This document shows positions 3,787-19,498 of a stretch of DNA of 32,073 nucleotides, piece by piece; position 1 is the first letter of the stretch; every line of letters begins with the position of its first letter. The notes under the pieces are model-generated. The model did not search any database and was not told where the DNA came from. It saw only the letters and a program-made list of their open reading frames with translations. Source of the stretch: Polyangia bacterium. Its GTDB lineage: Bacteria > Myxococcota_A > Polyangia > Polyangiales > Sandaracinaceae. The stretch spans positions 1 to 32,073 of the forward strand of contig JAUHXR010000071.1 in assembly GCA_030426845.1 (NCBI GenBank), written 5' to 3'. Both the position numbers and the translations under genes were made by a program.

Positions 3787-3811
3787 GGCCTGGGGTACCC
3801 TCTGCCAGGCC
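3787..3811 (+). terminator. Hairpin between the PBP and transglutaminase genes
   Basis: Arms GGCCTGG (3787-3793) and CCAGGCC (3805-3811) pair perfectly around an 11-nt loop. It lies 22 nt after the PBP stop and directly abuts the GTG start at 3812. It has no U-tract. It may end PBP transcription; the loop also contains TACCCT (3796-3801), a possible -10 element for the next gene. Confidence 0.4.
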
Positions 3812-6130
3812 GTGCACGTGACAAGACGCTTTGGGCTGGCGCCGGTCCTCCCGGCGCCGGCCCTCCTGACGCTGGCTCTCGTGGCGGTGGCGCTGCCCCC
3901 GCGCGGGGCTCGCGCGCAGCCGGCCGCCTCCGAGTCGGCCATCACCGTCGGCTCGCCGACGCCCCGCTGGGTCGAGCCGCTCGATGTCCCCGCCACCACG
4001 CCCGACGGCGAGGGCGGGTACGAGGACCTGCTCACCCAGATCGCGCTCCGGCCCGGACCGCGCGAGGGGCTGCGGTTCGTGCGCCGCGCCTACCACGTGC
4101 GCAACGCGAGCGGGGTCCAGGAGGCCTCCGAGCTCGAGGTCGCGGTGGCGGCGGACGAGACGCTCGCCTGGCACTACGCGCGCGTCCGCCGCGGGGGCGG
4201 CGTGACGGACCGGCTCCACGACGCCGGTCAGCTCCGCGTGATCCAGCCCGAGACGCGGCGCGACGAGGGCCTCTACGACGAGTCCCGCCACGTCGTCCTC
4301 ACCCTCGAGGACGTGCGCGCGGGCGACGTCATCGAGTACGCCTACACGATCCGACGTGACCTCTCGCTCTTCGGGGACCGCTACATCGAGCACGAGTCGT
4401 TCCCGGTCGGCTACTCCCGTCGCGTGCGCCTCGACGCGACCTGGCCGACCTCGCGCCCGGTCCGCGCGCGCCTGCGGGCGGTGGATCCGACGTGGGTGCT
4501 GCGCGACGAGCCCGGCGCGGTGCGGATCGAGGCGGTCGCGACCGAGCCGCCGGCCATGGTCGAGGACGCGCCGGGGTGGGCGCCACAGCGGCCCGCGATC
4601 GAGCTGAGCGAGTTCGGGACGTGGGCTGACGTCGCCGCGTGGGCCGCCGAGGCCTACGCGCCCGCGGCCGCGGAGCCCACGCCCGCCGGCGTCCCGCTCG
4701 AGCGCTTCCGCGCGGCCGGCGACGGCCCCCGCCCGGCGCGAGCCGCGCTCGAGTTCGTTCAGGACGAGGTCCGCTACCTCGGGCTCGAGATGGGTGAGCA
4801 CGCCCTCGTCCCGCACCTCCCGTCGGAGGTCGTCGCGCGACGATTCGGCGACTGCAAGGACAAGGCGCGACTCCTCGTCACGATCCTGGATGCCCTCGGC
4901 GTCGAGGCCGCGGTCGCGCTCGTGCACACCCGCCGGGGGCGCGACCTCGATGAGGCGCTCCCGTCGCCCTACGCGTTCAACCACGCGATCGTGGTGGCGG
5001 AGATCGACGGCCGCTCCGTGTGGCTCGATCCGACGCGCGCCGCGGAGCGCGGCCCGATCGGGGAGCGACCGCCGGTCGTCTTCGGGCGTGGCCTCCGGAT
5101 CCGGCCCGGAGCCAGCCTCGAGCCGATCCCCGTCGCGACGCCGACCGAGCCGCTCGTCGACATCGAGCAGCGCTTCGACCTGATGCGCAACCGCCCCAGG
5201 ATGGCCATCCGCACGACCTACCGCGGCGCAGAGGCGACCGACGTCCGCGCCGCGCTCCAGGCGTTCGGCGCGAGCGAGATCGGCGAGACCTCGCACGAGT
5301 TCCTCTCCGAGCGCACGGGCATGACCCTCAGCGTCGCCGATCCGCTCACCGTCGAAGACGACGAGGAGCACAACGTCTTGCGGATCGTCGAGACCTACCT
5401 CGTCGCGGACTTCTGGGGCACGGCCGGAGCAGACCTCACGCCGTGGGCGGTGATGTCGCGGCTGCCATCCGCCGACGCGCACCGCGGGGACCTCCCGCTC
5501 GCGATCGATCACCCGGTCTTCGTCCGCCACCGCGTCGAGGTGCGCGATCCCAACGGCTGGCAGATGCGGCCCGGATCGACCGACCTCTCCGCGCTGCCGC
5601 TGGTCATCCACCGGCAGGTCGAGGTCGAGGACACGCGCCTCGCGATCACGGTCACGCTGGAGAGCCGGGCCGACCACGTGCCCGCGGCGGAGGTCTCTGC
5701 GTTCGCGCGCGCGCTCGACGCGAGCGCCACGCAGCTCGAGTACGGGGTCACCAACGACCCCGAGCACATGGCGCCGGAGCCGACCGCCGCGCCCTCCGAG
5801 GTCGGCTTCGCCTGCGTCGGCGTCGTGCTGCTCCTCGCGCTCGGCGCGGGGCTGCGCATGGCGTACCTGGCCTGGCGGCGGAGGACGCGGCGCGTTCGCC
5901 ACCAGCGGGCCGCGACGCCCCGCCCGGGCGAGAGCCCCGAGACGGCGCTCGAGGCGGCCGATCTCGAGGCGGCGCGGGCCGCGCACCGCGGCTTTTCATG
6001 CTGCGGCGCGGCGCTCGACCCCGCCGACTGGGCCCGGGCCCGGTACGGGGAGGAGACGATCGCGGTGGCGTCGGCGACGTGCGCGGAGTGCGGCGAGCGC
6101 CACCGCGCGCACTACCGGCTCGGGTCGTGA
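3812..6130 (+). CDS. DUF3857/transglutaminase-like protein with C-terminal membrane segment and Cys cluster
   Basis: Predicted 772 aa from GTG at 3812 (another GTG at 3818); no Shine-Dalgarno sequence. A signal peptide ends near residue 36 (ARAQ). Residues about 60-270 resemble the DUF3857 beta-rich region usually found before a transglutaminase-like domain. The transglutaminase triad is intact: Cys348 in FGDCKDK, His391 in FNHAIV and Asp406 in WLDPT. Family members are secreted cysteine peptidase- or transglutaminase-like enzymes of unknown substrate. A membrane helix follows at about 664-688, then a basic stretch and a C-terminal domain with Cys730-Cys731 and Cys757-x-x-Cys760, which resembles a small zinc ribbon. 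The topology suggests the catalytic part in the periplasm and the Cys domain in the cytoplasm. Its stop codon lies inside a hairpin shared with the convergent lipoprotein gene. Confidence 0.9.
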   Translation: MHVTRRFGLAPVLPAPALLTLALVAVALPPRGARAQPAASESAITVGSPTPRWVEPLDVPATTPDGEGGYEDLLTQIALRPGPREGLRFVRRAYHVRNASGVQEASELEVAVAADETLAWHYARVRRGGGVTDRLHDAGQLRVIQPETRRDEGLYDESRHVVLTLEDVRAGDVIEYAYTIRRDLSLFGDRYIEHESFPVGYSRRVRLDATWPTSRPVRARLRAVDPTWVLRDEPGAVRIEAVATEPPAMVEDAPGWAPQRPAIELSEFGTWADVAAWAAEAYAPAAAEPTPAGVPLERFRAAGDGPRPARAALEFVQDEVRYLGLEMGEHALVPHLPSEVVARRFGDCKDKARLLVTILDALGVEAAVALVHTRRGRDLDEALPSPYAFNHAIVVAEIDGRSVWLDPTRAAERGPIGERPPVVFGRGLRIRPGASLEPIPVATPTEPLVDIEQRFDLMRNRPRMAIRTTYRGAEATDVRAALQAFGASEIGETSHEFLSERTGMTLSVADPLTVEDDEEHNVLRIVETYLVADFWGTAGADLTPWAVMSRLPSADAHRGDLPLAIDHPVFVRHRVEVRDPNGWQMRPGSTDLSALPLVIHRQVEVEDTRLAITVTLESRADHVPAAEVSAFARALDASATQLEYGVTNDPEHMAPEPTAAPSEVGFACVGVVLLLALGAGLRMAYLAWRRRTRRVRHQRAATPRPGESPETALEAADLEAARAAHRGFSCCGAALDPADWARARYGEETIAVASATCAECGERHRAHYRLGS

Positions 6131-6139
6131 TCCGAGCCG
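6116..6139. terminator. Bidirectional hairpin between convergent genes
   Basis: CGGCTCGG (6116-6123) and CCGAGCCG (6132-6139) form an 8-bp perfect stem with an 8-nt loop that contains the TGA stop (6128-6130) of the transglutaminase gene. The opposing lipoprotein gene stops at 6143. No U-tract is present on either strand. The position between convergent genes only 12 nt apart supports a two-way terminator. Confidence 0.55.
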
Positions 6140-6142
6140 CGC

Positions 6143-7081
6143 TCAGTCCATGCACTCGGCCGCGCCGTCGGCGCGGAGCGGGCCCACGTTGAGCACGGTG
6201 ACGTTGTCGGGGAAGATGCGCGCGGTCTCGCAACCCACCTTGACGAGCTCTCCGTCGACGTTGGCCCACGCCTCGACGCGGTAGGGGCGCTCGTCGACGA
6301 TCGGGACCTGCGGCACGACGTACAGGCCGTCGGGCGCGCTCTCGGTCGCGAGCGAGTTGGGCGTGTTGCCCAGCACGACGCCAGCGAAGTACGCGTAGCT
6401 CGGGTCGGAGGCGCTCGGGCCCTCCATGACGAAGTTGCCGTCCGGGTCGTACATGCGAACCCGCGCGTTGGCGATGTTGGCGTCGTTGCAGTCGTGGATC
6501 CGGCCGGCGACGATCGCGCGGCCCGGCTCGCGAGAGAAGCCGAGCGTGGCGGGGATCAGCTCGATGGTCACGCCCGAGACGCTCGTCCCGGTGACCGAGC
6601 CACCGGCCGACGCGGGCGCCGGCTCGTTGTACTGAAAGACACCGAACACCGTGTTGCGTCGGCTCGAGGGATCCTCGCGGGGGAACACCTGGTACGAGTA
6701 CCAACCGCCCGCCGGCATCATCACGCGCGCGTTGCCCGAGGCGTCGCTCACGATCTCCTGGCAGTTGGGGCCGCCGCAGTCCTGCGCGATGACGTTGTCG
6801 GTGAACACCCAGACCGTGATGTCGGGCACCTCGAAGTCGTCCGAGAAGTCTCGGAGCTGGAACTCCACGTCGACCGGCGCGCCGCCGGTGGGCGCGGTGC
6901 GGGTGCCGAGGCACGACAGGTCCAGGGTGGAGGGCTCGAACTCGTCCGCGCCCTCGAGGTAGACCTCGATCGGCGGAGGCAGGGCCACCGGAGGCCCGGC
7001 GTCGACCATCGGCTCACCGCCATCACAGGCCCCCGCGAGCGCGGCCACGGCCACCATCGATGCCAGTCGAATCCTCATCAT
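6143..7081 (-). CDS. Predicted lipoprotein downstream of barrel B
   Basis: Predicted 312 aa, not recognised as a named family. It starts at tandem ATGs (7081 and 7078) just after AGTGAGGGG; the second ATG gives better Shine-Dalgarno spacing. The N-terminus has a lipoprotein signal ending LAGAC (Cys19), followed by a Pro-rich spacer. The body is beta-rich and seems to hold two immunoglobulin-like or carboxypeptidase-regulatory-like segments: around 50-130 (DITVWVF, GNARVMMPAGGWYSYQVFP) and around 175-300 (AIVAGRIHDCNDANIANARV, RVEAWANVDGEL). Several cysteines (for example in DCGGPNC) may form disulfides, fitting export. Only 40 nt separate it from the barrel B gene upstream, so the two are probably one transcript and the proteins may work together in the outer membrane. 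Confidence 0.85.
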   Translation of the reverse strand: MMRIRLASMVAVAALAGACDGGEPMVDAGPPVALPPPIEVYLEGADEFEPSTLDLSCLGTRTAPTGGAPVDVEFQLRDFSDDFEVPDITVWVFTDNVIAQDCGGPNCQEIVSDASGNARVMMPAGGWYSYQVFPREDPSSRRNTVFGVFQYNEPAPASAGGSVTGTSVSGVTIELIPATLGFSREPGRAIVAGRIHDCNDANIANARVRMYDPDGNFVMEGPSASDPSYAYFAGVVLGNTPNSLATESAPDGLYVVPQVPIVDERPYRVEAWANVDGELVKVGCETARIFPDNVTVLNVGPLRADGAAECMD

Positions 7082-7121
7082 CCCCTCACTCCCTCGGCGC
7101 CCGTCCGCGCGCGCCCGTCTC

Positions 7122-9014
7122 TCAATAGCTGATCCCGAGGCGCGCGCGCATCATCCCGATCGGGTCCATGCTCCGGCCCTCGGCGTCGTCGAACGCCCGA
7201 CCGGGGAAAAAGACGCCTCCCTCGACGCCGCCGCTGAGGCGCACGCCCTCGGCCAGCTCGCCGCTCATCAGCACGCTCCCGTCGAGCTCGAAGCCCAGGT
7301 CGCGCCGCGTCGGGTCGCCGCCGCGCGGGTTCACGTTCGCGGAGCGCGCGCGCTGCTGGAAGACATCGACGTTGTCGGAGGAGGTCCACGCCACGACGGC
7401 CCCGAGCCGGCCCTCGAGCCACTCGAGGGGGCGCCACTTGGCGTAGGGGAAGAAATAGTAGGCGCCGCTCACCCCGCCGTTGGTGGGCAGCAGCTCCGCC
7501 CCGCGCGAGGGCCGCCCGAAGAGCTCCTCCGAGGACGCGAGGGCGGCGGTCCGCGCGCTCATCGCGGCCATCACCTCCGGGAAGAGGATGAGGCCGACGC
7601 GGTGGTCTGGGTCGAACGTCCCGCGTCGCTGCCAGCCGTCCTCGGCGTTGGAGTCGCCCGACGCGTAGCCGCCCTCGAGCACGAGATCGAAGTCGGTCGA
7701 CGTGCGGCCGAGCTGGACCGCGGCGAGGAGCTGCTCGACGTCCTGGGTCGGGTGCTCGACCGTCCGCGTGATCGACGTCGTGCCGCGCACGTAGGCGAGC
7801 TCGAAGGCGGTGAGGATGCGGCCGCCGCTCGGCTCGTCGAAGTACAGGTTCGCGAAGAGATCCCCGACGAACACCTGGAGCTCCTCGCCGTCGGCGTCCG
7901 TCTGGTTGCGGTAGGCGACGTAGCCACCGGCCCGGTTGTCGCCCTCCTCGTAGAAGGCGGCGACGAGGCCCTGGAACGCCTGGTCGTTGCGCCCGTCGAA
8001 GTCGGCGATCAGGTCCCACGCGACCCAGTCGCCCGCGACCGCGATCGTGAAGGGGCTGTCCTGGCCGGCGGGGCGCGTCGCGAACAGGAGGCGCCGCACC
8101 AGGTCGCCGTAGCGGTAGTCGCCGAACACCGGCGCCTGGTTGCCGCCGTTGCTGATGATGCCGAGCCCCCACGAGAACGCCTGCTGCCCGACCCGGAGCA
8201 TGCCGATCGGCGTGAGCCACTCGAGGTAGAGCTGCCGCAGCCGCAGGCCCGGGTAGCCGTACTCCTCGCGCGTCCACGCGGCGGGCCCCATCCCGGTCGC
8301 GAGGTCTCCGTAGGCGACGCCCCACACGAGGTCGACCTCGCCGACGAGCTTGAGGATCGGCCGCAGCGCGAGCTCGCCGCGCAGCCGCAGCCACTGCTCT
8401 CCCCAGGCGTTCGCGCCGTACTGGGAGGTCTCTCCGCTCGCGTCGCGCGGCATCGGCGTGAGGGGGAAGTCGCTGAGGAGCACGAAGCGGTGCCGGTACT
8501 CGCCGGTGATCCGCGCCCCGAACTGCAGGCCGGACTCGGAGTCGTCGTCGTCGGCCGGGTCCGAGTCGCTCGCGTCGTCGTCGGCCGACGTGGTGTCAGT
8601 GTCGTCAGCCTCTGAGTGGCTCGGCACGTCGTCGTCGCCCTCGTCCGTCTCGTCGGCGGATTCGGAGGCGTCGGTGGATTCGGAGGCGTCGGTGGATTCG
8701 GAGGCGTCGGTGGATTCGGAGGCGTCGGCGGATTCGGAGGCGTCGGCGCTCACGCCGCCGACGAGACCGTCGGTGTCGGCCGGCTCTCCCGGGCCTCCTG
8801 CGTCGGTCGCGTCGCCCACGCCGGCGCCCGGCTCTTCGTCGCTGGCCTCGTCGGGAGCGGCCGGATCCTCGGTGACCTCGGCGTCGGTCGGCGCGTCGGT
8901 CGGCGCGTCGGTCGGCGCCTCGTCGGTGGAGCCGCCCGCCGCGGGCTGGGCCTGCGCGCGGGTCGCCCCCCAGACGAGCGCTGCGATCACGAGGGTTTGC
9001 GCGAGGGCTCTCAT
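7122..9014 (-). CDS. Predicted outer-membrane beta-barrel protein with repetitive acidic linker (barrel B)
   Basis: Predicted 630 aa. I chose the ATG at 9014 because it opens a good signal peptide (MRALAQTLVIAALVWGATRA, then QAQ); the frame stays open far upstream without sensible protein. Residues about 25-165 are Asp/Glu/Ser/Thr/Ala-rich and contain tandem DAPT and DASEST repeats. The following roughly 465 residues look like an outer-membrane barrel and end in GISY. The central segment RLRQLYLEWLTPIGMLRVGQ, then FGDYRYGD and LLFATRP, matches the same region of barrel A, so the two genes are diverged paralogs with the same architecture (signal peptide, acidic linker, barrel). Substrate or role is unknown; porin, adhesin anchor or surface scaffold are all possible. 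The lipoprotein gene at 6143-7081 follows closely. The leader upstream contains two palindromes. Confidence 0.85.
   Translation of the reverse strand: MRALAQTLVIAALVWGATRAQAQPAAGGSTDEAPTDAPTDAPTDAEVTEDPAAPDEASDEEPGAGVGDATDAGGPGEPADTDGLVGGVSADASESADASESTDASESTDASESTDASESADETDEGDDDVPSHSEADDTDTTSADDDASDSDPADDDDSESGLQFGARITGEYRHRFVLLSDFPLTPMPRDASGETSQYGANAWGEQWLRLRGELALRPILKLVGEVDLVWGVAYGDLATGMGPAAWTREEYGYPGLRLRQLYLEWLTPIGMLRVGQQAFSWGLGIISNGGNQAPVFGDYRYGDLVRRLLFATRPAGQDSPFTIAVAGDWVAWDLIADFDGRNDQAFQGLVAAFYEEGDNRAGGYVAYRNQTDADGEELQVFVGDLFANLYFDEPSGGRILTAFELAYVRGTTSITRTVEHPTQDVEQLLAAVQLGRTSTDFDLVLEGGYASGDSNAEDGWQRRGTFDPDHRVGLILFPEVMAAMSARTAALASSEELFGRPSRGAELLPTNGGVSGAYYFFPYAKWRPLEWLEGRLGAVVAWTSSDNVDVFQQRARSANVNPRGGDPTRRDLGFELDGSVLMSGELAEGVRLSGGVEGGVFFPGRAFDDAEGRSMDPIGMMRARLGISY
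8654..8743 (-). repeat. Five 18-bp tandem repeats coding DASEST/DASESA
   Basis: Units at 8654, 8672, 8690, 8708 and 8726 are identical except for one position (cggcgg in units 1 and 5, cggtgg in units 2-4). The period is a multiple of three, so unit gain or loss keeps the barrel B frame and only changes linker length. Confidence 0.95.
8881..8916 (-). repeat. Three 12-bp tandem repeats coding DAPT
   Basis: Three perfect 12-bp units (gcgtcggtcggc) lie near the N-terminal end of the barrel B linker and code for the DAPT tetrapeptide. The repeat is in frame and acidic, like the 18-bp array nearby. Confidence 0.9.
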
Positions 9015-9015
9015 C

Positions 9016-9049
9016 GGTCCGCGGACCCCGGCGGGGTGGCGAGAAGGTA
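9016..9049 (-). promoter_or_regulatory. Barrel B leader: -10-like element and two palindromes
   Basis: Directly upstream of the ATG at 9014 lies a perfect 12-bp palindrome GGTCCGCGGACC (9016-9027). Next to it is a hairpin ACCCC-GGC-GGGGT (9025-9037). Beyond these, TACCTT (9049-9044 on the minus strand) could be a -10 element, giving a leader of roughly 30 nt without a Shine-Dalgarno sequence. The palindrome could be an operator or a translation-masking structure. Confidence 0.35.
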
Positions 9050-9161
9050 TTCCTGAGTCGAAGAAAAGGGAATGCCGGGCCGGGTCCCGCGTGTGGCACC
9101 GCACGTGGGGCCGCTGGTGGACCGACCGGGCGCCGTTCTTCGGCCGAGCGAGGCCAGATGC

Positions 9162-9167
9162 TATCAA
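9162..9167 (+). promoter_or_regulatory. -10-like element 6 nt before the lipoprotein start
   Basis: GCTATCAAG places TATCAA 6 nt ahead of ATG 9174. No Shine-Dalgarno sequence is present and no clear -35 is seen. The spacing implies transcription starting at or next to the ATG. Confidence 0.4.
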
Positions 9168-9173
9168 GCGTCC

Positions 9174-10964
9174 ATGCGCGCCTGGCCCCTGGTTCTGGCT
9201 CTTGCCCTCGGGGGCTGCGACTCGTGCGGCGGCGGCGGGCCCGTCCCGTTCGGGCTCGACGGATCGGCGGGGCGCGTGGAGCCGGACGAGGAGCCGCGGC
9301 CAGACCGCACGAGGGAGGCGCCGACCGAGGGCCGCGCGCTGCCGGCAGGCACCCGACGGGTCGAGGTGGAGGGAGCGCCCATCGCGTCGGAGCGCTCCCT
9401 GCGGGCGCTCTGGGCGCACGACGTCGACGGCGACGGCGATCGCGACGCGATCCTCGTGGCCGAGGGCGACCCCGCCGAGGGGCCCGTGCACCTGCTCTTC
9501 GCGCGACGCGACGGCGCACAGTTCGGCGAGCCGCGGGTGCTCGGCCGGGCGGCGCCCGCCGGCGCGGGCTGCGGCGTCGACGAGGCGACGATCGCGACGA
9601 CCGGGCCGTGGCTCGTCGCGCGCGCGACCGTGACCTGCGAGGGCGGCGGCGGCGGCGGTGAGGAGGTCTTCGTCCTGTCGGCCGAGGGCGAGCCACGCGT
9701 GCACGAGCGGCTCGGCACGATCGCGACCGACGAGCCGGGCGCGATCCGCCTCGCGCTCGGCCACGACGACGTCGACGAGGACGGCCGCGACGACCTGACG
9801 GTCGAGGTCGCGCTCACGACCCACGACCGCGAGGACCGCCTCAACCTGCACTGGCTCGACCGCCCGAGCGGGCTCTCGCGCCAGACCGACGAGCCCAACG
9901 CCACCCTCGACGCGCGCTCGCGCGAGGCGCTCCGCGCGCTGCGCGGCGACCCTCTGGCCGCGATCGCGGCCTCGCGCGCGGTCCTCCGGCTGCACCGCGC
10001 GGTCTGCGCGGAGCCCGGCCACGCGCGCCTCCGCGTCGGCAGCCGGGCGGGTCTCGACTGCGGCGACTCCGAGGGCGCGGGCCGCGCGATCACCACCGTG
10101 GTCCGCGGCCACGCCGCGCGCGGCGAGGCGATGGCCGCGATCGACGCCTACGCCGCGCTCGAGGACCCCGGCCGCCGCATCAACGACGAGCGCCGGCGCT
10201 ACGCGCGGGCCGCGCTCGCGAGCCTGCCCGGCGGGTCGGGCCTCACCCTGACCGAGGGGCCGCCCGTGAGCCCCCCGCCGGCACGTGACGCCACCCTCTC
10301 CGCGCTCGGATTCCTCGACGAAGACCGGGTGCTGGTCCGCGCGCGCGCGCCGCAGATCTGGACGATCGGCGGCGAGCTCGGGCCGGCCGATCCCGGCGCG
10401 GCCGACGTCCGCGTGCTCGACCCGCAGAAGCGCTTCCTCGTGGGGAGCCTCGAGAGCCGCTGCGGCGCGACCCGCCTCCGCGTCGCGCCGACGGCCTCGA
10501 TCGCGCCGGGTGTGATCGACGCGGAGGCGGCGTCGACCCCGACGCTCTACGGCGCACCCGACGCCTGCGCCGACGCCTGGCAGCCGGGCGGCGCGGGCTG
10601 GCGCCTGCTCGGCTGGGCGCCCCAGGGGATCGTCGCCGCGCGGGAGGCGGAGCTGCGGGTGGTGCCCCTCGACGTGAGCGCGCGCCCCACCCTGCCGCCG
10701 CGCACCCTCGACGCGGGGGAGCTGCCGCCGGCGCCGCTGCCGGCCGGCGCGGCGACCCTCGACGGACGCTTCCGCGTCGAGCTGCGCGGCCCCGCGGTGC
10801 TCCTCTACGACGTTCAGGGAGGCGCGGCGCCGCAGCTCCTGTGGCCCGAGGGCTGGGCTGATCGCGAAGGCACGCCGAGCCACCCCGCGGTCTCACCTTC
10901 CGGGCGGCGCGTCGCGGTCGTCCAGGGCGGCCGGGTCGTCCTGCTGGAACGGGCGTCGAATTGA
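9174..10964 (+). CDS. Lipoprotein with Asp-rich (FG-GAP/VCBS-like) calcium-loop motifs and beta-propeller-like body
   Basis: Predicted 596 aa. The frame is open further upstream (to about 9072), but ATG 9174 begins a clean lipoprotein signal MRAWPLVLALALGGCDSCGG with the acylated Cys at position 15. Two Asp-rich loops, DVDGDGDRD near residue 83 and DVDEDGRDD near residue 200, resemble the calcium-binding loops of FG-GAP/VCBS repeats found in integrin-like propellers. The middle (about 245-360) is Ala/Arg-rich and probably helical. The last 230 residues contain propeller-like strands, for example FLDEDRVLVRARAPQIWTIG and HPAVSPSGRRVAVV near the end, the latter similar to TolB/WD40-type blades. 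The exact family is not recognised. The TGA stop lies 32 nt before the next lipoprotein's ATG, so the two are probably linked. Confidence 0.85.
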   Translation: MRAWPLVLALALGGCDSCGGGGPVPFGLDGSAGRVEPDEEPRPDRTREAPTEGRALPAGTRRVEVEGAPIASERSLRALWAHDVDGDGDRDAILVAEGDPAEGPVHLLFARRDGAQFGEPRVLGRAAPAGAGCGVDEATIATTGPWLVARATVTCEGGGGGGEEVFVLSAEGEPRVHERLGTIATDEPGAIRLALGHDDVDEDGRDDLTVEVALTTHDREDRLNLHWLDRPSGLSRQTDEPNATLDARSREALRALRGDPLAAIAASRAVLRLHRAVCAEPGHARLRVGSRAGLDCGDSEGAGRAITTVVRGHAARGEAMAAIDAYAALEDPGRRINDERRRYARAALASLPGGSGLTLTEGPPVSPPPARDATLSALGFLDEDRVLVRARAPQIWTIGGELGPADPGAADVRVLDPQKRFLVGSLESRCGATRLRVAPTASIAPGVIDAEAASTPTLYGAPDACADAWQPGGAGWRLLGWAPQGIVAAREAELRVVPLDVSARPTLPPRTLDAGELPPAPLPAGAATLDGRFRVELRGPAVLLYDVQGGAAPQLLWPEGWADREGTPSHPAVSPSGRRVAVVQGGRVVLLERASN

Positions 10965-10996
10965 GTCCGGCCCGCCGCCCTGTTACTCCTCGCGTG

Positions 10997-12343
10997 ATGC
11001 GCCACCGTGCCGCTCGCGGGAGCCGTGCTGCTCACGGGACCTCCGTTGCTCGAGCAGCCTACGCCGCCGTGCTCGCCTCGTGCTGGTTGTGGGTCTCTTG
11101 CGGCGCGGGCGCCGCGCGCCCCGCCCCGTGCATGTCCGACCGCGAGTGCCACGGCTCGCGCGTCTGCCACCAGGGCAGCTGCATGTTCGAGGAGGAGGCC
11201 CGCGCGCACCTCGACCGCCAGCTCGCGGGCGAGGCGGGCGACCCCGACGGCACGCCGGGCGTCGACGCGGGGGTGACCGCGGGCGGGGAGGAGCCCGCGA
11301 CCGACCCGCCGCCCGCGCTGGCCGAGCGCCCGATGTTCATGGGCGGCCCGCAGCACACCGGGCGCTCTGGCCGACTCGGCCCCGCGGCTACCCCGTCGGT
11401 CGCGTGGACCCACCGCACCGGCGCGCGCGTCTTCGCCAGCCCGGTGGTCGGCCCGGACGGGACCATCTACGTCGGCTCTCTCGACCGTACGTTCCGCGCG
11501 ATCGGACCGGACGGCTCGCTGCGCTGGCGCTACTCGGGCCAGGACAAGTTCTATTCCAGTGCTGCGATCACCCCCGACGGCACCATCGTGGTGGGCTGCC
11601 ACGACCGGTCGGTCATCGCGCTGACCGCCCAGGGCCAGACCCGCTGGCGGCGCGAGCTGCCGGCGCCGGTGGACTCGAGCCCGGCGGTGTCCGACGACGG
11701 GACCATCTACGTCACCGCCGACGGCCTCTACGCGCTCGACCCGGAGGGCAACGTCCGGTTCCACCACGCGGCCGCGAGCGGGGTGCGCAGCTCACCCGCG
11801 ATCCACCCGGACGGATTCGTGGTCTACGGCTCGACCGACGGCCGGGTGGTCGCGGTGCGCGCCGACGGGCAGCTCGCGTGGGAGCTCCGGGTCAGCTCGA
11901 GCATCGAGTCGGCGCCCGCGATCGGCCCGGACGGCTCGATCTACATCGGCACCGACCGCGGACAGCTCGTCGCGATCTCACGCGACGGCCGCGAGCGCTG
12001 GCGTCACGAGGTGGGCGGCGACGTGCGCGCGACCCCCGCGATCACTCCCGACGGCACGATCGTCGTCGGCGCCTACGACCGCCAGCTCCACGCGGTGGGA
12101 GCCGACGGTCAGCCCCGCTGGACGCTCCGCACCGACGGGCGCATTCGCGCCTCCGCCCGCGTCGACGCCGAGGGGCGCATCTACGTCGGCTCGCAGGACG
12201 ACCACCTCTACGCGGTCAGCCCGGACGGCGAGCGCCTGTGGGACCGCAACATGGGCGAAGACATCGACTCGTCGGTCGCGTTCGGGCCCGACGGCACGAT
12301 CTACGTCGGCGTCGACGACGGCGGCGTCTACGCGCTCCGCTGA
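10997..12343 (+). CDS. PQQ-type eight-bladed beta-propeller lipoprotein
   Basis: Predicted 448 aa from ATG 10997 (a GTG at 10994 is possible; a TTG overlapping the previous stop is less likely). The N-terminus is basic, then hydrophobic, and ends in WVSC, a likely lipobox. A Cys-rich motif C-x4-EC-x4-VC-x3-SC follows (CMSDREC, then GSC), a disulfide knot common in myxobacterial surface lipoproteins. After an acidic/Pro spacer, eight blades of about 38-42 residues follow, each with the pattern SSPAxxPDGTIYVGSxDxxxxAxxPDGxxRW. These are PQQ-like (BamB/quinoprotein-type) repeats without the dehydrogenase residues needed to bind PQQ, so a scaffold or binding role is more likely than catalysis. 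The previous lipoprotein gene is 32 nt upstream. Confidence 0.9.
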   Translation: MRHRAARGSRAAHGTSVARAAYAAVLASCWLWVSCGAGAARPAPCMSDRECHGSRVCHQGSCMFEEEARAHLDRQLAGEAGDPDGTPGVDAGVTAGGEEPATDPPPALAERPMFMGGPQHTGRSGRLGPAATPSVAWTHRTGARVFASPVVGPDGTIYVGSLDRTFRAIGPDGSLRWRYSGQDKFYSSAAITPDGTIVVGCHDRSVIALTAQGQTRWRRELPAPVDSSPAVSDDGTIYVTADGLYALDPEGNVRFHHAAASGVRSSPAIHPDGFVVYGSTDGRVVAVRADGQLAWELRVSSSIESAPAIGPDGSIYIGTDRGQLVAISRDGRERWRHEVGGDVRATPAITPDGTIVVGAYDRQLHAVGADGQPRWTLRTDGRIRASARVDAEGRIYVGSQDDHLYAVSPDGERLWDRNMGEDIDSSVAFGPDGTIYVGVDDGGVYALR

Positions 12344-12370
12344 GGCCGGCGGCTCGCGGGTCGACCTCCC

Positions 12371-12435
12371 GCGAAGGCCTCACGCGAAGGTCTCACGCGA
12401 AGGCCTCACGCGAAGGCCTCACGCGAAGGCCTCAG
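12371..12435. repeat. Five 13-bp tandem repeats at the end of the response-regulator gene
   Basis: Units of gcgaaggcctcac start at 12371, 12384, 12397, 12410 and 12423. Unit 2 differs by one base (ggt for ggc) and unit 5 ends in g. The response-regulator stop codon (12434-12432) lies inside the last unit, and the array fills most of the gap to the convergent propeller gene. Confidence 0.95.
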
Positions 12436-12866
12436 TCGCGGCTGCGCGCGTTCTTGCGCCGGTGCCGCTCCACAGCCTCGAGCAGCTCCGGCACGTTGAA
12501 CGGCTTCTCGAGCCCCATGACCGCGCCGATCTGCGCGGCCCGATCTTGCGGCCCGTGGCTCGCCGTGAGCAGCAAGGCCGGCGGCGCCTCCTCGCGCAGC
12601 TCCTCGCGGAGCGCGCCGAGCACCATCCCGCCGTCCATGCCCGGCATCATGTAGTCGAGCACGAGCAGCCCGGGGGCGTGCTCCTTGGTCAGGGCGACGG
12701 CGGTCTGTCCGTCGGGGGCGGTGAGCACGGTGTGCCCCTCGCTCTGGAGGATGCGCGCGATGGCCTCCCGGAGGTGGGGGTCGTCGTCGATCACGAGGAT
12801 CGGGCGGTCGGGCCCGTCGGGGCCGTCGCGGTCGCTGCCGTCGTCGCTGCCGTCGTGGTCTGCCAT
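12432..12866 (-). CDS. Stand-alone response regulator (receiver domain only)
   Basis: Predicted 144 aa from ATG 12866, with GGAG about 8 nt upstream. An unusual Asp/Gly-rich N-terminal tail of about 22 residues is followed by one complete CheY-like receiver domain. Visible active-site residues are the acidic pair Asp27-Asp28 (VIDDD), phospho-acceptor Asp71 (LVLDYMMPGMDG), Thr101 (LLTAS) and Lys121 (GLEKPF). No DNA-binding or enzymatic output domain follows, so it probably signals by protein contact, in CheY or Spo0F style. No histidine kinase lies nearby, so its partner is unknown. It ends within a 13-bp repeat array. Confidence 0.95.
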   Translation of the reverse strand: MADHDGSDDGSDRDGPDGPDRPILVIDDDPHLREAIARILQSEGHTVLTAPDGQTAVALTKEHAPGLLVLDYMMPGMDGGMVLGALREELREEAPPALLLTASHGPQDRAAQIGAVMGLEKPFNVPELLEAVERHRRKNARSRD

Positions 12867-13229
12867 GGGGAGCTCCAGCTCGGGCCGGACCCTGTCACGC
12901 GGCCCGCGCCGCGCGCACGCAAGACCGGGCGGGGGGCGCTCTTTGTTCACGCGGCGCGGCGAAATCCTCAATGACCTCGTGAGGCGGTCCGCGCGTCGGA
13001 GGCCCACGAGGGCGATCCGTCGGCCCTCAGCGCGCGGACGCCCGGGGATCGCGCGCGACACCCCGAACCCGAGTGGGGGGTCACTCAGGGGTTTGACCGG
13101 CGAGCGGTTCGTGGCTAAGTCTGGGCCGCGGGCGAAGGTCTCTCGAGGCCTCCTGCGAACCCCTCCGGCGCGCGCTCCACGAAGAGCCGCGTTCCTTATC
13201 GAGATGCCCTGGATGGGCCTGAAGAGAAG
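12867..13229 (+). promoter_or_regulatory. 363-bp divergent intergenic region before rnr
   Basis: No convincing gene other than a possible 9-codon ORF at its right end. A weak sigma-70-like promoter toward rnr can be proposed: TTGACC (13093-13098), 16-bp spacer, CTAAGT (13115-13120). Open frames through the region on the minus strand are Arg/Pro/Ala-rich and do not look like protein. Confidence 0.3.

Positions 13230-13233
<4 letters not shown>
13204..13233 (+). CDS. Possible 9-codon upstream ORF overlapping the rnr start
   Basis: ATG 13204 opens the short frame MPWMGLKRR, whose TGA (13231-13233) overlaps the rnr ATG (13230-13232) as ATGA. Such overlap allows translational coupling. The frame is tiny and has no clear Shine-Dalgarno sequence, so it may be chance. 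Confidence 0.2.
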
Positions 13234-15689
<2,456 letters not shown>

Positions 15690-15801
15690 CGCCACCTTCC
15701 CCTCGCGTCCGCGCCGCGACGTGAGGCGGGGAGGTCGGCAGCGGATACGAGGACTCCCGGGAGCACGTCGACGAGCACGTGCGCATCGACACGCGCGGGG
15801 C

Positions 15802-16695
15802 TTACTCGGGGCCGAGGCGCTCGAGGACGACCGTCTGGGTGATGCCCTGTGAGTTCTCGGCCTCGAGCTTCACCAGGCCGACCTCCGGCGCGACCCACTG
15901 GACGCCGCGGCCGGTCTCGCCGTGCTCGCCGAACTGCTGGCTCTCCTCGTACTCGACCCGCCACGCCTCGAAGCGTCCGGCGGGGACCTCGATCGTCTCC
16001 TGCCGCTCGACCACGTGGCGGCGCGTGACGCGCAGCAGGCTCGGCTCGGTGACGCCGTCCGGCGGGCGCATGTCGGCCTGGCGCGGATCGAAGGTCGCCG
16101 TCCCGCGGAACCGGAGCCCGGGGGTCAGCGCGGCCGGCCATCGCCAGCGCCCCGCGCGCGCGGTGAGGCGCAGGCCGAGGCTCCGCTCGAGGATGCCGAA
16201 CCAGGGCTCCTCGGAGGACTCCCCCGGCACGCAGCGCGTGATGAGGTCGGCGCGCGCGAGCTCGGAGTCGTCGTCGGTCGCGATGACCCGCGCGAGCCAC
16301 AGCACCTGCACCTCGTCGTCGAGCCGTCGCGCCCGGCGCGCCTCGATGCGGAGCACCGCCTCGCGCTCCTGGTCGCTCTGGGTCCATCGGTAGCGGCGCC
16401 ACTGGCCCGCGCTGGACGGCACGAAGGGGTGCTCGCAGGCCTCGGCCTCCACCACGTCGTCGCCCTCGTCGATCGGCGCAGCCTCGCCCGCCTCCTCGCC
16501 CTCGAGCCCCTCGATCGGCACACGGCCCTCGAGGTCCTCGGGGTTGGGCACCACGATCGTGGTGTCACTGGGCCTCGCCGCGGGCGGCTCGTAGGTGCCG
16601 AGGTCCGGCTCCGGGTCCTCGCGCAGGGCGAGGTTGAGCGCGACGAGCCCTGCGACCGCGCCGCCCAGCACGAGCCAGATCCAGTGCCTGCGCAT
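15802..16695 (-). CDS. Membrane-anchored hypothetical protein, DUF3108-like C-terminal half
   Basis: Predicted 297 aa from ATG 16695; the frame is open much further upstream over the phosphorylase gene, but this ATG begins a clear signal-anchor (HWIWLVLGGAVAGLVALNLAL). An acidic, Pro-containing linker (about 27-80) leads to a beta-rich domain starting at HPFVPSSAGQWRRYRWT. Near the C-terminus, EVPAGRFEAWRVEYE and WVAPEVGLVKLE recall the pattern of DUF3108-like periplasmic proteins, in which paired strands surround a conserved PAG-F and W-AP-GLVK. Function is unknown; the assignment is by motif resemblance only. It is divergent from the nucleoside phosphorylase, with an 11-bp repeat array between them, and has no Shine-Dalgarno sequence but a -10-like TATAGA 6 nt ahead of the ATG. 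Confidence 0.8.
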   Translation of the reverse strand: MRRHWIWLVLGGAVAGLVALNLALREDPEPDLGTYEPPAARPSDTTIVVPNPEDLEGRVPIEGLEGEEAGEAAPIDEGDDVVEAEACEHPFVPSSAGQWRRYRWTQSDQEREAVLRIEARRARRLDDEVQVLWLARVIATDDDSELARADLITRCVPGESSEEPWFGILERSLGLRLTARAGRWRWPAALTPGLRFRGTATFDPRQADMRPPDGVTEPSLLRVTRRHVVERQETIEVPAGRFEAWRVEYEESQQFGEHGETGRGVQWVAPEVGLVKLEAENSQGITQTVVLERLGPE

Positions 16696-16701
16696 CGGTG
16701 C

Positions 16702-16707
16702 TCTATA
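16702..16707 (-). promoter_or_regulatory. -10-like TATAGA directly before the 15802-16695 gene
   Basis: On the minus strand GCTATAGAG puts TATAGA 6 nt ahead of ATG 16695. This is the best -10 match in the set of suspected leaderless starts. The -35 area is GC-rich and coincides with the edge of the 11-bp repeat array at 16728. Confidence 0.45.
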
Positions 16708-16727
16708 GCGCCTCGTCGCGCGGGCGG

Positions 16728-16873
16728 CCCGAAAGCGGCCCGAGAGCGCGACGAGAGCGGCCCGAGCGCGCCTCGAGAGCGGCCCGAGCCGCCGGAGAAT
16801 CACAGGAGCCCACCCGAGAACGGCCCGAGAACGGCCCGAGAACGGCCCGAGAACGGCCCGAGAACGGCCCGAG
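16728..16873. repeat. 11-bp tandem repeat array in a divergent promoter region
   Basis: Six degenerate units (consensus cccgagagcgg) run in register at 16728, 16739, 16750, 16761, 16772 and 16783. After a 19-bp break, five perfect cccgagaacgg units follow at 16813, 16824, 16835, 16846 and 16857, with a partial sixth. The 11-bp period is close to one DNA turn, so identical bases face the same side of the helix. Confidence 0.95.
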
Positions 16874-16931
16874 GCAGGCACAGACCCGACCGCAGGGAGG
16901 ACAATTGCTGCGCCTCGGCCCCCGCCTGCCC

Positions 16932-16937
16932 TACCCT
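16932..16937 (+). promoter_or_regulatory. -10-like TACCCT before the nucleoside phosphorylase
   Basis: CCTACCCTG places TACCCT 7 nt ahead of ATG 16945. No Shine-Dalgarno sequence is seen between them, which suits a leaderless transcript. Confidence 0.4.
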
Positions 16938-16944
16938 GCCGGGC

Positions 16945-18273
16945 ATGGCCAAGGCAGCGCCGCTCCCCACCGTCCCCGAGCTCATCGCGCTCAAGCGCGA
17001 CGGCAAGGCCCTCACCGCCACGCAGATCGAGCACCTCATCGACGGGTTCACCCGCGGCGAGGTCGCGGACTACCAGATGAGCGCGCTCGCGATGGCGATC
17101 TACCTGCGCTCGATGACGCCGGCGGAGACGGCGGCGCTGACCCTCGCGATGCGCGACAGCGGCGACGTCGTGAAGCTCAGCCAGGCGCGCGGTCGCTACG
17201 TCGACAAGCACTCGACCGGCGGGGTCGGCGACAAGGTCTCGATCTGCCTCGCCCCGATCGTGGCCGCCTGCGGCGTGCGCGTGCCGATGGTCTCGGGCCG
17301 CGGCCTCGGCCACACCGGCGGCACGCTCGACAAGCTCGAGTCGATCGAGGGCTTCTCGGTCGACATGAGCGTCGCGGACTTCGTCGCCCAGGTCGACTCG
17401 CTCGGCTGCGCGCTGATCGGTCAGACCGCGGACATCGCCCCGGCCGACAAGCGGCTCTACGCGCTCCGCGACGTGACGGGGACGGTGGAGTCCATCCCGC
17501 TGATCACCGCGTCGATCCTCAGCAAGAAGCTCGCAGAGGGCATCGACGCGCTCGTCCTCGACGTGAAGGTCGGGCGCGGCGCGTTCATGAAGAGCCTCGA
17601 CGACGCGCGCGAGCTGGCGCGATCGCTGGTGCGCGTCGGCAAGCTCGCCAAGAAGAAGGTCACCGCGATCCTCACCCCGATGGAGTCGCCGCTCGGACGG
17701 ACGATCGGCAACGCGCTCGAGACGCGCGAGGCGCTCGAGATCCTGACCGGGGGCGGCCCGCGCGACCTGCGCGAGATCACCTTCGTCCTCGGGGCCGAGA
17801 TGATCCGCCTGGCCGGCCTCGCCAAGGCCGAGGGCCCCGCCCGCGCGATGATGGCGAGCGTGATCGACAACGGCGCGGCGGCGCGGAAGATGCGCGAGAT
17901 CATCGCGGCCCAGGGCGGAGACGCCCGCGTGGTGGACGAGCCCGACCGGCTGCCGACCGCGCCGACCCGCGTGAAGGTCAAGGCGGACCGCGCCGGCTTC
18001 GTCCACGGCATCCACGCGCTCGAGGCCGGCATGACCGCCCTGGGCCTCGGCGCCGGCCGCACCCGCGCGGACCAGGCGATCGATCCCCGCGTGGGGATCG
18101 TGCTGCACAAGATCCGGGGCGACCGGGTGGCCGAGGGCGACGTGCTCGCCGAGCTGCACGTCGCCGAGCGCAAGGGCACCGCGCCGGCGGCGAAGCGCCT
18201 CCTCGCGGCCTACGAGATCAAGCCCCGTGCGCCGAAGCTCCAGCCGCTCGTGCTCGATACGATCCGGCGGTGA
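16945..18273 (+). CDS. deoA: Thymidine/pyrimidine-nucleoside phosphorylase
   Basis: Predicted 442 aa, matching DeoA (440) and Pdp (about 433). The enzyme splits thymidine or other pyrimidine nucleosides with phosphate to the base and (deoxy)ribose 1-phosphate in nucleoside salvage. The phosphate-binding signature KHSTGGVGDK is at residues 88-97, followed by SGRGLGHTGGTLDKLE and the substrate-site region YALRDVTGTVESIPLITAS with SKKLAEG. The helical N-terminal domain (DYQMSALAMAIYL) and the C-terminal domain (GAGRTRADQAIDPRVGI) are complete. DYQ-SALAMAI is closer to Pdp while other stretches resemble DeoA, so substrate range is uncertain. The start was placed at MAKAAPLP because the frame upstream runs over the repeat array without protein character. 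It is monocistronic, facing the acyl-CoA dehydrogenase. Confidence 0.96.
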   Translation: MAKAAPLPTVPELIALKRDGKALTATQIEHLIDGFTRGEVADYQMSALAMAIYLRSMTPAETAALTLAMRDSGDVVKLSQARGRYVDKHSTGGVGDKVSICLAPIVAACGVRVPMVSGRGLGHTGGTLDKLESIEGFSVDMSVADFVAQVDSLGCALIGQTADIAPADKRLYALRDVTGTVESIPLITASILSKKLAEGIDALVLDVKVGRGAFMKSLDDARELARSLVRVGKLAKKKVTAILTPMESPLGRTIGNALETREALEILTGGGPRDLREITFVLGAEMIRLAGLAKAEGPARAMMASVIDNGAAARKMREIIAAQGGDARVVDEPDRLPTAPTRVKVKADRAGFVHGIHALEAGMTALGLGAGRTRADQAIDPRVGIVLHKIRGDRVAEGDVLAELHVAERKGTAPAAKRLLAAYEIKPRAPKLQPLVLDTIRR

Positions 18274-18319
18274 CGGAGCTCGGGCGGGTCGCCGCAGGGC
18301 GAGGACGAGCGCACGGGAA

Positions 18320-18339
18320 CCGGGCGCTCGCGCGCCCGG
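18320..18339. terminator. Bidirectional hairpin between deoA and the acyl-CoA dehydrogenase
   Basis: CCGGGCGC (18320-18327), loop TCGC, GCGCCCGG (18332-18339) is a perfect 8-bp GC stem. It ends exactly where the TAG stop of the opposing acyl-CoA dehydrogenase begins (18340), 46 nt after the phosphorylase stop. No U-tract is present. Confidence 0.6.
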
Positions 18340-19485
18340 CTACAGGCCACGCGCCTTGGTGATGATCTCGTTCATGATCTCCCGCGTGCCGCCCCCGATC
18401 GGGTAGAGGCGCGCGTCGCGGTACAGCCGCTCGACGAGGACCTCGCGCATGTAGCCGTAGCCGCCGTGGATCTGCACCGCAGCGTCGCACACGAAGCTGC
18501 ACATGTCGGTCGCCACGTTCTTGGTCATCGCGGCCAAGGCCGGGTCCTCCTCGCCTCGCGCGTAGCGGACCGCGAGCTCGCCGGTGAGCGCGCGCGCGGC
18601 CGCGATCTGGCTGCTCATGTCGGCGAGCTTGTGGCGCAGCACCTGGAAGCCCCGGATCGGGCGGCCGAACGCCTCGCGCTCCCTCGAGTAGCGGATGGAC
18701 TCCCGCAGCGCGAGCTCCGCGATCGCGACGCACTGGCCAGCGATGAGCAGCCGCTCCTGCGTGAAGTTCGTCATGATGAGGAGGAACCCCGCGTTCTCGG
18801 CCCCGATGAGGTTCTCCGCCGGCACGCGGCAGCCGTCGAACGAGAGCTCCGCGGTATCGCTCGCCCACCAGCCGGTCTTCTTGAGCTTCTTGCTCACCGT
18901 GAACCCGGGCGTCTCGCGCTCGATGACGAGGAGCGAGATGCCGCCGTGCTGCTCGCCGCCGGTCCGCACCGCGGTCGTCACGAAGTCGCAGCGTGTCCCC
19001 GACGTGATGAACGTCTTGCTCCCGTTCACCACGTAGCAGTCGCCGTCCCGCGTCGCCGTGGTGCGGAGGCTCGCGACGTCGCTGCCGCCGCCGGGCTCGG
19101 TGATCCCGAGGGAAGCGATCTTGTCGCCACGCAGCACCGGTTCGACGAAGCGACGCCGCTGGTCGTCGGTGCCGTGCTTGAGGATCGGCGGGAGCGCGAT
19201 CGTGTGGCTGCCGAGGCCGACGCAGGTGCCGACCGAGTGTCCGGCGAGGATCTGCTCCTCGGCCGCGACGAGGAGGTGGGTCACGTCGCCGCCCGCGCCG
19301 CCGACCGACTCCGGGTAGCCGACGCCGAGGACGCCGGCCTCGGCCGCCTTGGCGTAGAGCGCGCGCGGGAACTCCTCCGCCTCCTCCCACGCGTGCGCGT
19401 GGGGGGCGATCTCGGTGGAGGCCCAGCGCCGGACCTGCGCGCGCAGCGCGGCGTGCTCGTCGCTCTCGAAGAGGTAGGTGCTCAC
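18340..19485 (-). CDS. Acyl-CoA dehydrogenase family flavoprotein
   Basis: Predicted 381 aa, standard for the family. I chose GTG 19485 (STYLFESDEHAALR) because it gives the usual N-terminal helix; an ATG 10 codons earlier is possible. FAD-dependent members introduce a C2-C3 double bond in acyl-CoA and pass electrons to ETF. Visible signatures are LGITEPGGGSDVASL near 120, NGSKTFITSG (FAD contacts) near 150, FGRPIRGFQVLRHKLADM near 265 and IHGGYGYMRE near 340. The site of the MCAD-type catalytic Glu (YEGT) reads IGGGT here, as in long-chain/isovaleryl-type members that take the base from another helix. Substrate chain length cannot be told. There are no beta-oxidation neighbours. A -10-like TATCCT lies 7 nt before the GTG. 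Confidence 0.95.
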   Translation of the reverse strand: MSTYLFESDEHAALRAQVRRWASTEIAPHAHAWEEAEEFPRALYAKAAEAGVLGVGYPESVGGAGGDVTHLLVAAEEQILAGHSVGTCVGLGSHTIALPPILKHGTDDQRRRFVEPVLRGDKIASLGITEPGGGSDVASLRTTATRDGDCYVVNGSKTFITSGTRCDFVTTAVRTGGEQHGGISLLVIERETPGFTVSKKLKKTGWWASDTAELSFDGCRVPAENLIGAENAGFLLIMTNFTQERLLIAGQCVAIAELALRESIRYSREREAFGRPIRGFQVLRHKLADMSSQIAAARALTGELAVRYARGEEDPALAAMTKNVATDMCSFVCDAAVQIHGGYGYMREVLVERLYRDARLYPIGGGTREIMNEIITKARGL

Positions 19486-19492
19486 GGCGCGC

Positions 19493-19498
19493 AGGATA
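19493..19498 (-). promoter_or_regulatory. -10-like TATCCT before the acyl-CoA dehydrogenase
   Basis: The minus strand reads GCTATCCTG, then 6 nt to the GTG at 19485 (7 nt from the hexamer). No Shine-Dalgarno sequence lies between. This match also favours GTG 19485 over the upstream ATG, which would lie upstream of the promoter element. Confidence 0.4.

What the first reader, a model, noticed from the sequence alone, without database searches (positions are those of the whole stretch)
3796..19498. Recurrent TAnnnT element 6-10 nt before start codons: likely leaderless genes
Six starts lack a Shine-Dalgarno sequence and carry a -10-like hexamer just upstream: 3796-3801 (10 nt before GTG 3812), 9162-9167 (6 nt before ATG 9174), 10984-10989 (TACTCC, 7 nt before ATG 10997), 16702-16707 minus (6 nt before ATG 16695), 16932-16937 (7 nt before ATG 16945) and 19493-19498 minus (7 nt before GTG 19485). 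Flanks repeat as GCTATC, GCTATA, CCTACC. A -10 at this distance puts the transcription start at or beside the start codon. By contrast, most genes of the ribosomal block have clear Shine-Dalgarno sequences. Leaderless mRNAs are well known in actinobacteria and Deinococcus, less so in Myxococcota.
Basis: partly seen in the sequence, partly recalled or inferred. Interest (0 to 1): 0.55.

Follow-up and report, generated by a model that had tools for sequence, protein, structure and literature searches.

The report
Genes probably transcribed without a leader
In this soil-bacterium relative many genes appear to have their promoter right against the start codon, so their messages would begin at or within a few letters of the protein code; this mode is well known in some other bacteria and here looks common, conserved and patchy within one phylum.

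Summary
In the window, three of six sites are literal TAnnnT boxes scoring far above chance (GTG 3812, ATG 16945, GTG 19485); two are off-consensus but conserved in relatives (ATG 9174, ATG 16695); one (ATG 10997) is not supported. In 537 kb of the same genome, TAnnnT 5-10 nt before the start occurs at 50 of 406 starts called from codon usage alone, against 5.2 after shuffling and 7 of 6817 internal ATG/GTG. Genome-wide, GnTAnnnT-N7-ATG occurs 189 times, against 28 at a frame-matched spacer of 19. These starts avoid Shine-Dalgarno (SD) sequences, are rarely operon-internal and carry an extended -10 G: they look like promoters. Expected result: transcription starting 0-4 nt before the start codon in roughly 16-20% of genes. 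Acyl-CoA dehydrogenase orthologues carry this box or an SD, never both. No RNA data were available. The kind is known: Zheng et al. 2011 predicted it in 8 of 33 delta-Proteobacteria. Added here: quantification, promoter anatomy and a patchy distribution (14 of 57 Myxococcota genomes significant).

The parts
3796..3801 (+). -10-like box TACCCT, 10 nt before GTG 3812 (DUF3857/transglutaminase-like protein)
   Evidence: sequence; score 10.2, p 0.0017 on shuffled upstream sequence; no informative orthologue start
3812..6130 (+). gene with proposed leaderless start GTG 3812
   Evidence: Pfam DUF3857 1e-19; codon-only start was 3881, the stretch 3812-3880 reads like a signal peptide (reading by eye)
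9162..9167 (+). off-consensus -10-like box TATCAA, 6 nt before ATG 9174
   Evidence: score 3.4, p 0.042; orthologues L172/L173 TATCAC and L174 TATGAC before ATG
9174..10964 (+). gene with proposed start ATG 9174 (lipoprotein-like N-terminus, by eye)
10984..10989 (+). TACTCC, 7 nt before ATG 10997: not supported as a promoter box
   Evidence: score 0.5, p 0.16; no matching box in L142-L144; start uncertain
10997..12343 (+). PQQ-like beta-propeller gene, start uncertain
   Evidence: Pfam PQQ_2 3.9e-57; 32 nt after the co-directional upstream gene, possibly in one operon
16702..16707 (-). -10-like box TATAGA (in GCTATAGA), 6 nt before ATG 16695
   Evidence: score 4.7, p 0.019; orthologues L107/L108 GCTATACGTGCCGGGATG
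15802..16695 (-). DUF3108-like gene, codon-only start also 16695
16932..16937 (+). -10-like box TACCCT, 7 nt before ATG 16945
   Evidence: score 8.6, p 0.0049; comparable boxes before the start in L046-L048, L067, L069, L071, L074
16945..18273 (+). pyrimidine-nucleoside phosphorylase-like gene, codon-only start also 16945
19493..19498 (-). -10-like box TATCCT, 7 nt before GTG 19485
   Evidence: score 12.0, p 0.0000 on shuffled upstream sequence; TAnnnT at 5-10 nt in 37 of 82 unique close orthologue upstreams
18340..19485 (-). acyl-CoA dehydrogenase gene, codon-only start also 19485

Best explanation
The boxes are -10 elements of housekeeping-sigma promoters, of an extended type (G-n-TAnnnT), placed so that RNA polymerase starts 0-4 nt before the start codon. 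The mRNAs would be leaderless or nearly so, and would be translated without an SD by ribosomes that recognise the 5'-terminal AUG or GUG. In this genome about 16-20% of genes would use this mode, alongside SD-led genes. Shown by sequence: motif, spacing, SD avoidance, operon position, conservation. Inferred: the transcription start, sigma factor and mode of ribosome binding.
For: Sharp spacing peak (16, 10, 12, 7 at 6, 7, 8, 9 nt, against about 1 elsewhere) and 50 of 406 against 5.2 shuffled (max 12 of 100 shuffles) and 7 of 6817 internal codons. Whole genome 189 against 28 (spacer 19) and 27 (spacer 21). In-frame starts with a score of 6 or more in 82 of 397 genes against 3 and 4 in the other frames (matrix partly trained on the same genes). 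SD in 3 of 50 box starts against 106 of 356 others, p=0.00013; co-directional neighbour within 30 nt 6 of 48 against 46 of 102 SD starts, p=8.6e-5. G two bases before TA in 36 of 50 (background 0.35), weak -35 excess 41 of 80 against 29.7. The same GnTAnnnT lies at -100..-26 of 10 of 44 SD-led first genes but 0 of 47 operon-internal ones, so it behaves as a general promoter element. Replicated in G001 (30 of 320 against 3.0) and 41 pooled loci (71 of 496 against 8.4). Acyl-CoA dehydrogenase orthologues: 37 of 82 against 2.7 shuffled, none with both box and SD.
Against: No 5' ends were measured. The -35 signal is weak and, at 4 or more matches, absent in G001 (2 of 30 against 2.2). Spacers 8-9 would leave a leader of a few nt if the start lies 7 nt after the hexamer. 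GTG starts are common among box starts (20 of 48), whereas E. coli leaderless translation favours AUG (recalled). 6 of 48 box starts lie within 30 nt of a co-directional upstream gene, where a promoter is less expected. Start calls are computational.
Confidence: 0.87

Rival explanations
1. The box is a translational or ribosome-binding signal (for example an A/U-rich S1-type site) in leadered mRNAs, not a promoter.
For: It sits at about the distance of an SD and replaces it.
Against: Box starts are depleted where a gene follows a co-directional neighbour closely (6/48 against 46/102), which a translational signal would not be. G at -14 and a weak -35 accompany it. The same motif lies further upstream of SD-led first genes and not of operon-internal ones.
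Confidence: 0.07
2. The boxes are chance AT-rich hexamers, or stop codons of upstream genes, picked after the fact.
For: Probably true of 10997 (p 0.16) and possible for 9174 (p 0.042).
Against: Genome-wide excess; TA[CT]nnT, which cannot begin with a stop codon, alone gives 30 of 406 against 3.0; only 1 of 50 boxes overlaps the stop of a called upstream gene.
Confidence: 0.04
3. The boxes are promoters, but the true start codon lies further downstream, so these mRNAs have ordinary leaders and the N-termini are mis-called.
For: Codon-only starts for 3812, 9174 and 10997 lie 69-192 nt downstream.
Against: Chance would not fix the spacer to a start codon at 6-9 nt; 16695, 16945 and 19485 were called without upstream signals; in orthologues the box keeps its distance to the start codon while flanks diverge.
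Confidence: 0.05

Closest known systems
TANNNT-type leaderless genes of bacteria (Zheng et al. 2011, PMC3160421; Actinobacteria, Deinococcus-Thermus, some delta-Proteobacteria)
   Same: TAnnnT with uninformative middle bases in a high-GC genome, first T about 12-15 nt before the start, no SD
   Different: Here an extended -10 G is prominent (36 of 50); the main text of that paper names no 'Myxococc', Sorangium or Anaeromyxobacter and its supplement was not readable here
Mycobacterial leaderless transcripts (PMC3898074, PMC4633059)
   Same: Predicted architecture: -10 element against an ATG/GTG start, mixed with SD-led genes
   Different: There the 5' ends are mapped; here they are inferred (those papers seen only as search listings)
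Extended -10 (TGnTATAAT) sigma-70 promoters (recalled)
   Same: G at -14, weak -35
   Different: The T of TG is only mildly enriched (0.25 against 0.146)

Membership tests
TANNNT-type leaderless bacterial genes | TANNNT with its first T about 12 nt before the translation start, above background | tested here: met
   50 of 406 against 5.2 shuffled; peak spacers 6-9, first T 12-15 nt from the start; 189 against 28 genome-wide
TANNNT-type leaderless bacterial genes | No Shine-Dalgarno sequence | tested here: met
   3 of 50 against 106 of 356
TANNNT-type leaderless bacterial genes | Mostly first genes of transcription units | tested here: met
   6 of 48 closely co-directional against 46 of 102 SD starts
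TANNNT-type leaderless bacterial genes | Primary transcript begins at or within a few nt of the start codon | not testable with these tools
   No RNA data for this organism; a M. xanthus Cappable-seq set exists (PMC8844925, passages read) but its tables were not readable here
TANNNT-type leaderless bacterial genes | Translation without SD from the 5'-terminal start codon | not testable with these tools
   Needs ribosome profiling or reporters
Extended -10 sigma-70 promoters | G at -14 next to TAnnnT | tested here: met
   36 of 50 own, 18 of 30 G001, background 0.35
Extended -10 sigma-70 promoters | -35 element absent or weak | tested here: inconclusive
   3 or more matches to TTGACA in 41 of 80 against 29.7; 4 or more in 9 against 5.1
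TANNNT-type leaderless bacterial genes: window site 10997 | Box scores above shuffled upstream sequence | tested here: not met
   p 0.16

The most novel reading that the evidence does not exclude
Leaderless expression is a major, lineage-patchy mode within Myxococcota, strongest in the high-GC Sandaracinaceae of the window and some other families and undetected in several others, driven by extended -10 promoters; orthologous genes switch between a box against the start codon and an SD, never carrying both, so the phylum offers a natural series for how one initiation mode turns into the other.
Probability: 0.55. Interest if true: 0.55.

Novelty: new member of a known kind. Interest (0 to 1): 0.42.

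Why it matters
If RNA mapping agrees, roughly one gene in five or six here starts without a leader, so SD-based start calling will mis-place many N-termini in these large genomes, and heterologous expression of their genes should take the box into account. The patchy spread among related families, with orthologues in either mode, makes the evolution between leaderless and SD-led initiation directly testable outside Actinobacteria.

Tried and rejected
Considered and set aside: stop codons of upstream genes as the source of TA (1 of 50); chance; a purely translational signal. The transglutaminase-like gene (3812) gave only two near orthologues with an alignable N-terminus and no box at the same place (L112, L113), so conservation is untested there; for the PQQ-like gene (10997) the orthologue starts differ and show no consistent box.

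Weak or negative results: Myxococcota loci with GC below 0.64 gave 7 of 136 against 4.3 shuffled, where my gene finder also found too few genes. G012 8 of 142 against 4.0 and G037 7 of 124 against 1.9 are small; G043 4 of 109 against 6.5 and G077 3 of 150 against 2.6 show nothing. Desulfobacterales loci 2 of 65 against 5.0. In one search (24 genomes, only the reversed pattern as control) the Pyxidicoccus genome gave 91 against 72 and the Byssovorax one 233 against 75; Desulfobacterales exceeded the reversed control too (748 against 422 in G104), so that control is unreliable in AT-richer genomes and I base nothing. The first pattern control (spacer 21) was not frame-matched, so I repeated it with spacer 19. 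Myxococcota literature: searches 'leaderless'+'myxococc', 'leaderless'/'transcription start site'/'Myxococcus xanthus', 'leaderless'+'Sorangium', 'leaderless'+'deltaproteobacteria'+'Shine-Dalgarno', 'leaderless'+'myxobacter' (12 of 22 listed) and a M. xanthus start-site search (12 of 398 listed) listed no paper about leaderless genes in Myxococcota; the library is open-licence only.
Full report
What was checked. The window is contig C128 of a 9.40-Mb draft genome. By record titles of its nearest named relatives it belongs to or near Sandaracinaceae (Myxococcota): the upstream region of a same-family genome's acyl-CoA dehydrogenase gene is identical to that of a Sandaracinaceae MAG (L076 and L225), and that of another to an uncultured Sandaracinus (L086 and L295).

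Genome-wide test. I took 537 kb of the same genome including the window and called genes from codon usage only, so that starts were not chosen by upstream signals. Of 406 starts, 50 have TAnnnT 5-10 nt upstream. Dinucleotide shuffles give 5.2 on average, 12 at most in 100; internal in-frame ATG/GTG codons give 7 of 6817; the peak is at 6-9 nt. In G001, a same-family complete genome (400 kb taken), the numbers are 30 of 320 against 3.0, and in 41 pooled Myxococcota loci with GC of at least 0.64 (of 59 loci of 8 kb or more, of 71 fetched) 71 of 496 against 8.4. Counting the stricter GnTAnnnT-N7-ATG over the whole genome gives 189, against 28 at a frame-matched spacer of 19 and 27 at a spacer of 21.

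How many genes. Allowing other in-frame starts near the codon-based one, 82 of 397 genes have a start scoring at least 6 (64 at 8 or more), against 3 and 4 (1 and 0) in the other two frames; G001 gives 49 of 320 (39). The other frames offer fewer candidate codons (1139 against 485 and 303), but per candidate the excess remains five- to tenfold. The matrix was trained partly on the same genes, so I read this as roughly 16-20% here and 12-15% in G001.

What the box is. Starts with the box rarely have an SD-like tetramer (3 of 50 against 106 of 356) and rarely follow a co-directional gene within 30 nt (6 of 48 against 46 of 102 SD starts; G001 3 of 30 against 42 of 105). A G two bases before TA occurs in 36 of 50 and 18 of 30 against a background of 0.35; a weak -35 excess is present (41 of 80 with 3 or more matches against 29.7; at 4 or more 9 against 5.1, none in G001 alone). 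The same GnTAnnnT lies 26-100 nt upstream of SD-led first genes (10 of 44; G001 4 of 48) but of no operon-internal SD gene (0 of 47; 0 of 43). This is what a promoter element does and what a translational signal does not. Boxes that cannot begin with a stop codon show the excess too (30 of 406 against 3.0), and one of 50 overlaps an upstream stop codon.

The six sites. With a matrix trained without the window, 19485-, 3812+ and 16945+ are strong, 16695- and 9174+ moderate, 10997+ at chance. Relatives support 19485 most: among 125 upstream regions examined (L098-L103 and L222-L224 were left out as truncated, paralogous or second copies), 112 are unique. Of the 82 from the closest proteins (64% identity or more, titles mostly Myxococcota or Deltaproteobacteria), 37 have TAnnnT at 5-10 nt (2.7 shuffled), 16 an SD, 29 neither, none both; of 22 more distant proteins 15 have an SD and none the box; of 8 Desulfobacterales 6 have an SD and none the box. 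Several of the 29 with neither carry near-boxes such as CATCCT or GAAGCT at the same place, close relatives included, which counts against strict conservation in the own family. For 16945, seven listed orthologues show a comparable box, while many others have a start reached from an A-rich upstream reading frame. For 16695, two orthologues share GCTATA; for 9174, three share TATnA.

Spread. In 57 Myxococcota genomes the spacer-7 count exceeds the spacer-19 count significantly in 14 (Bonferroni), the window's genome most (6.75-fold); the ratio is near 1 in every sampled member of families f14, f15, f17, f19 and f23 (0.83 to 1.46). Family codes carry no names. GC content was not separated from lineage.

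Comparison with print. Zheng et al. 2011 (PMC3160421; sections on archaea/Table 2 and on bacteria read, plus passages) predicted TANNNT leaderless genes in 8 of 33 delta-Proteobacteria genomes (mean 15.8%, 5.7-20.6), and describe TAnnnT with uninformative middle bases in high-GC groups. StartLink+ (PMC9581028, passages) states that leaderless transcription was predicted in 21.6% of bacterial species with GeneMarkS-2; that original paper was not held. PMC5397173 and PMC10783764 (passages) hold no mention of 'Myxococc'. A M. xanthus Cappable-seq data set exists (PMC8844925, passages); the genes shown there have leaders, which says nothing about the rest. So the kind is known; explicit treatment of Myxococcota was not found in the searches listed.

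Verdict. The finding is right in substance: a real set of promoters against start codons, most likely giving leaderless or nearly leaderless mRNAs. It is a new member of a known kind, with a useful comparative angle. Shown: sequence statistics and conservation. Inferred: transcription starts and mode of translation.

Noticed in passing
16724-16873: Imperfect 11-bp tandem array (GCGGCCCGAGA, 13.9 copies) fills much of the 249-bp gap between the divergent starts 16695 and 16945.
   Followed up: no
12365-12434: 13-bp unit CCTCACGCGAAGG repeated 5.4 times (94% matches) between convergent genes ending at 12343 and 12432.
   Followed up: no
8651-8748: 18-bp unit repeated 5.4 times at 97% inside the minus-strand gene 7122-8990/9014, which has no Pfam match.
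   Followed up: no
L144, L174, L106, L048, L078 (genome G003 contig C126, 62793-72519): The order FG-GAP-like, PQQ-like, DUF3108-like, phosphorylase, acyl-CoA dehydrogenase is kept in a same-family genome, and largely in G005 C130, while start signals vary.
   Followed up: partly
phylum sample: The box count ratio differs within single families (f12 6.31 to 1.22; f22 3.15 to 1.26), suggesting recent gains or losses or a GC effect.
   Followed up: partly
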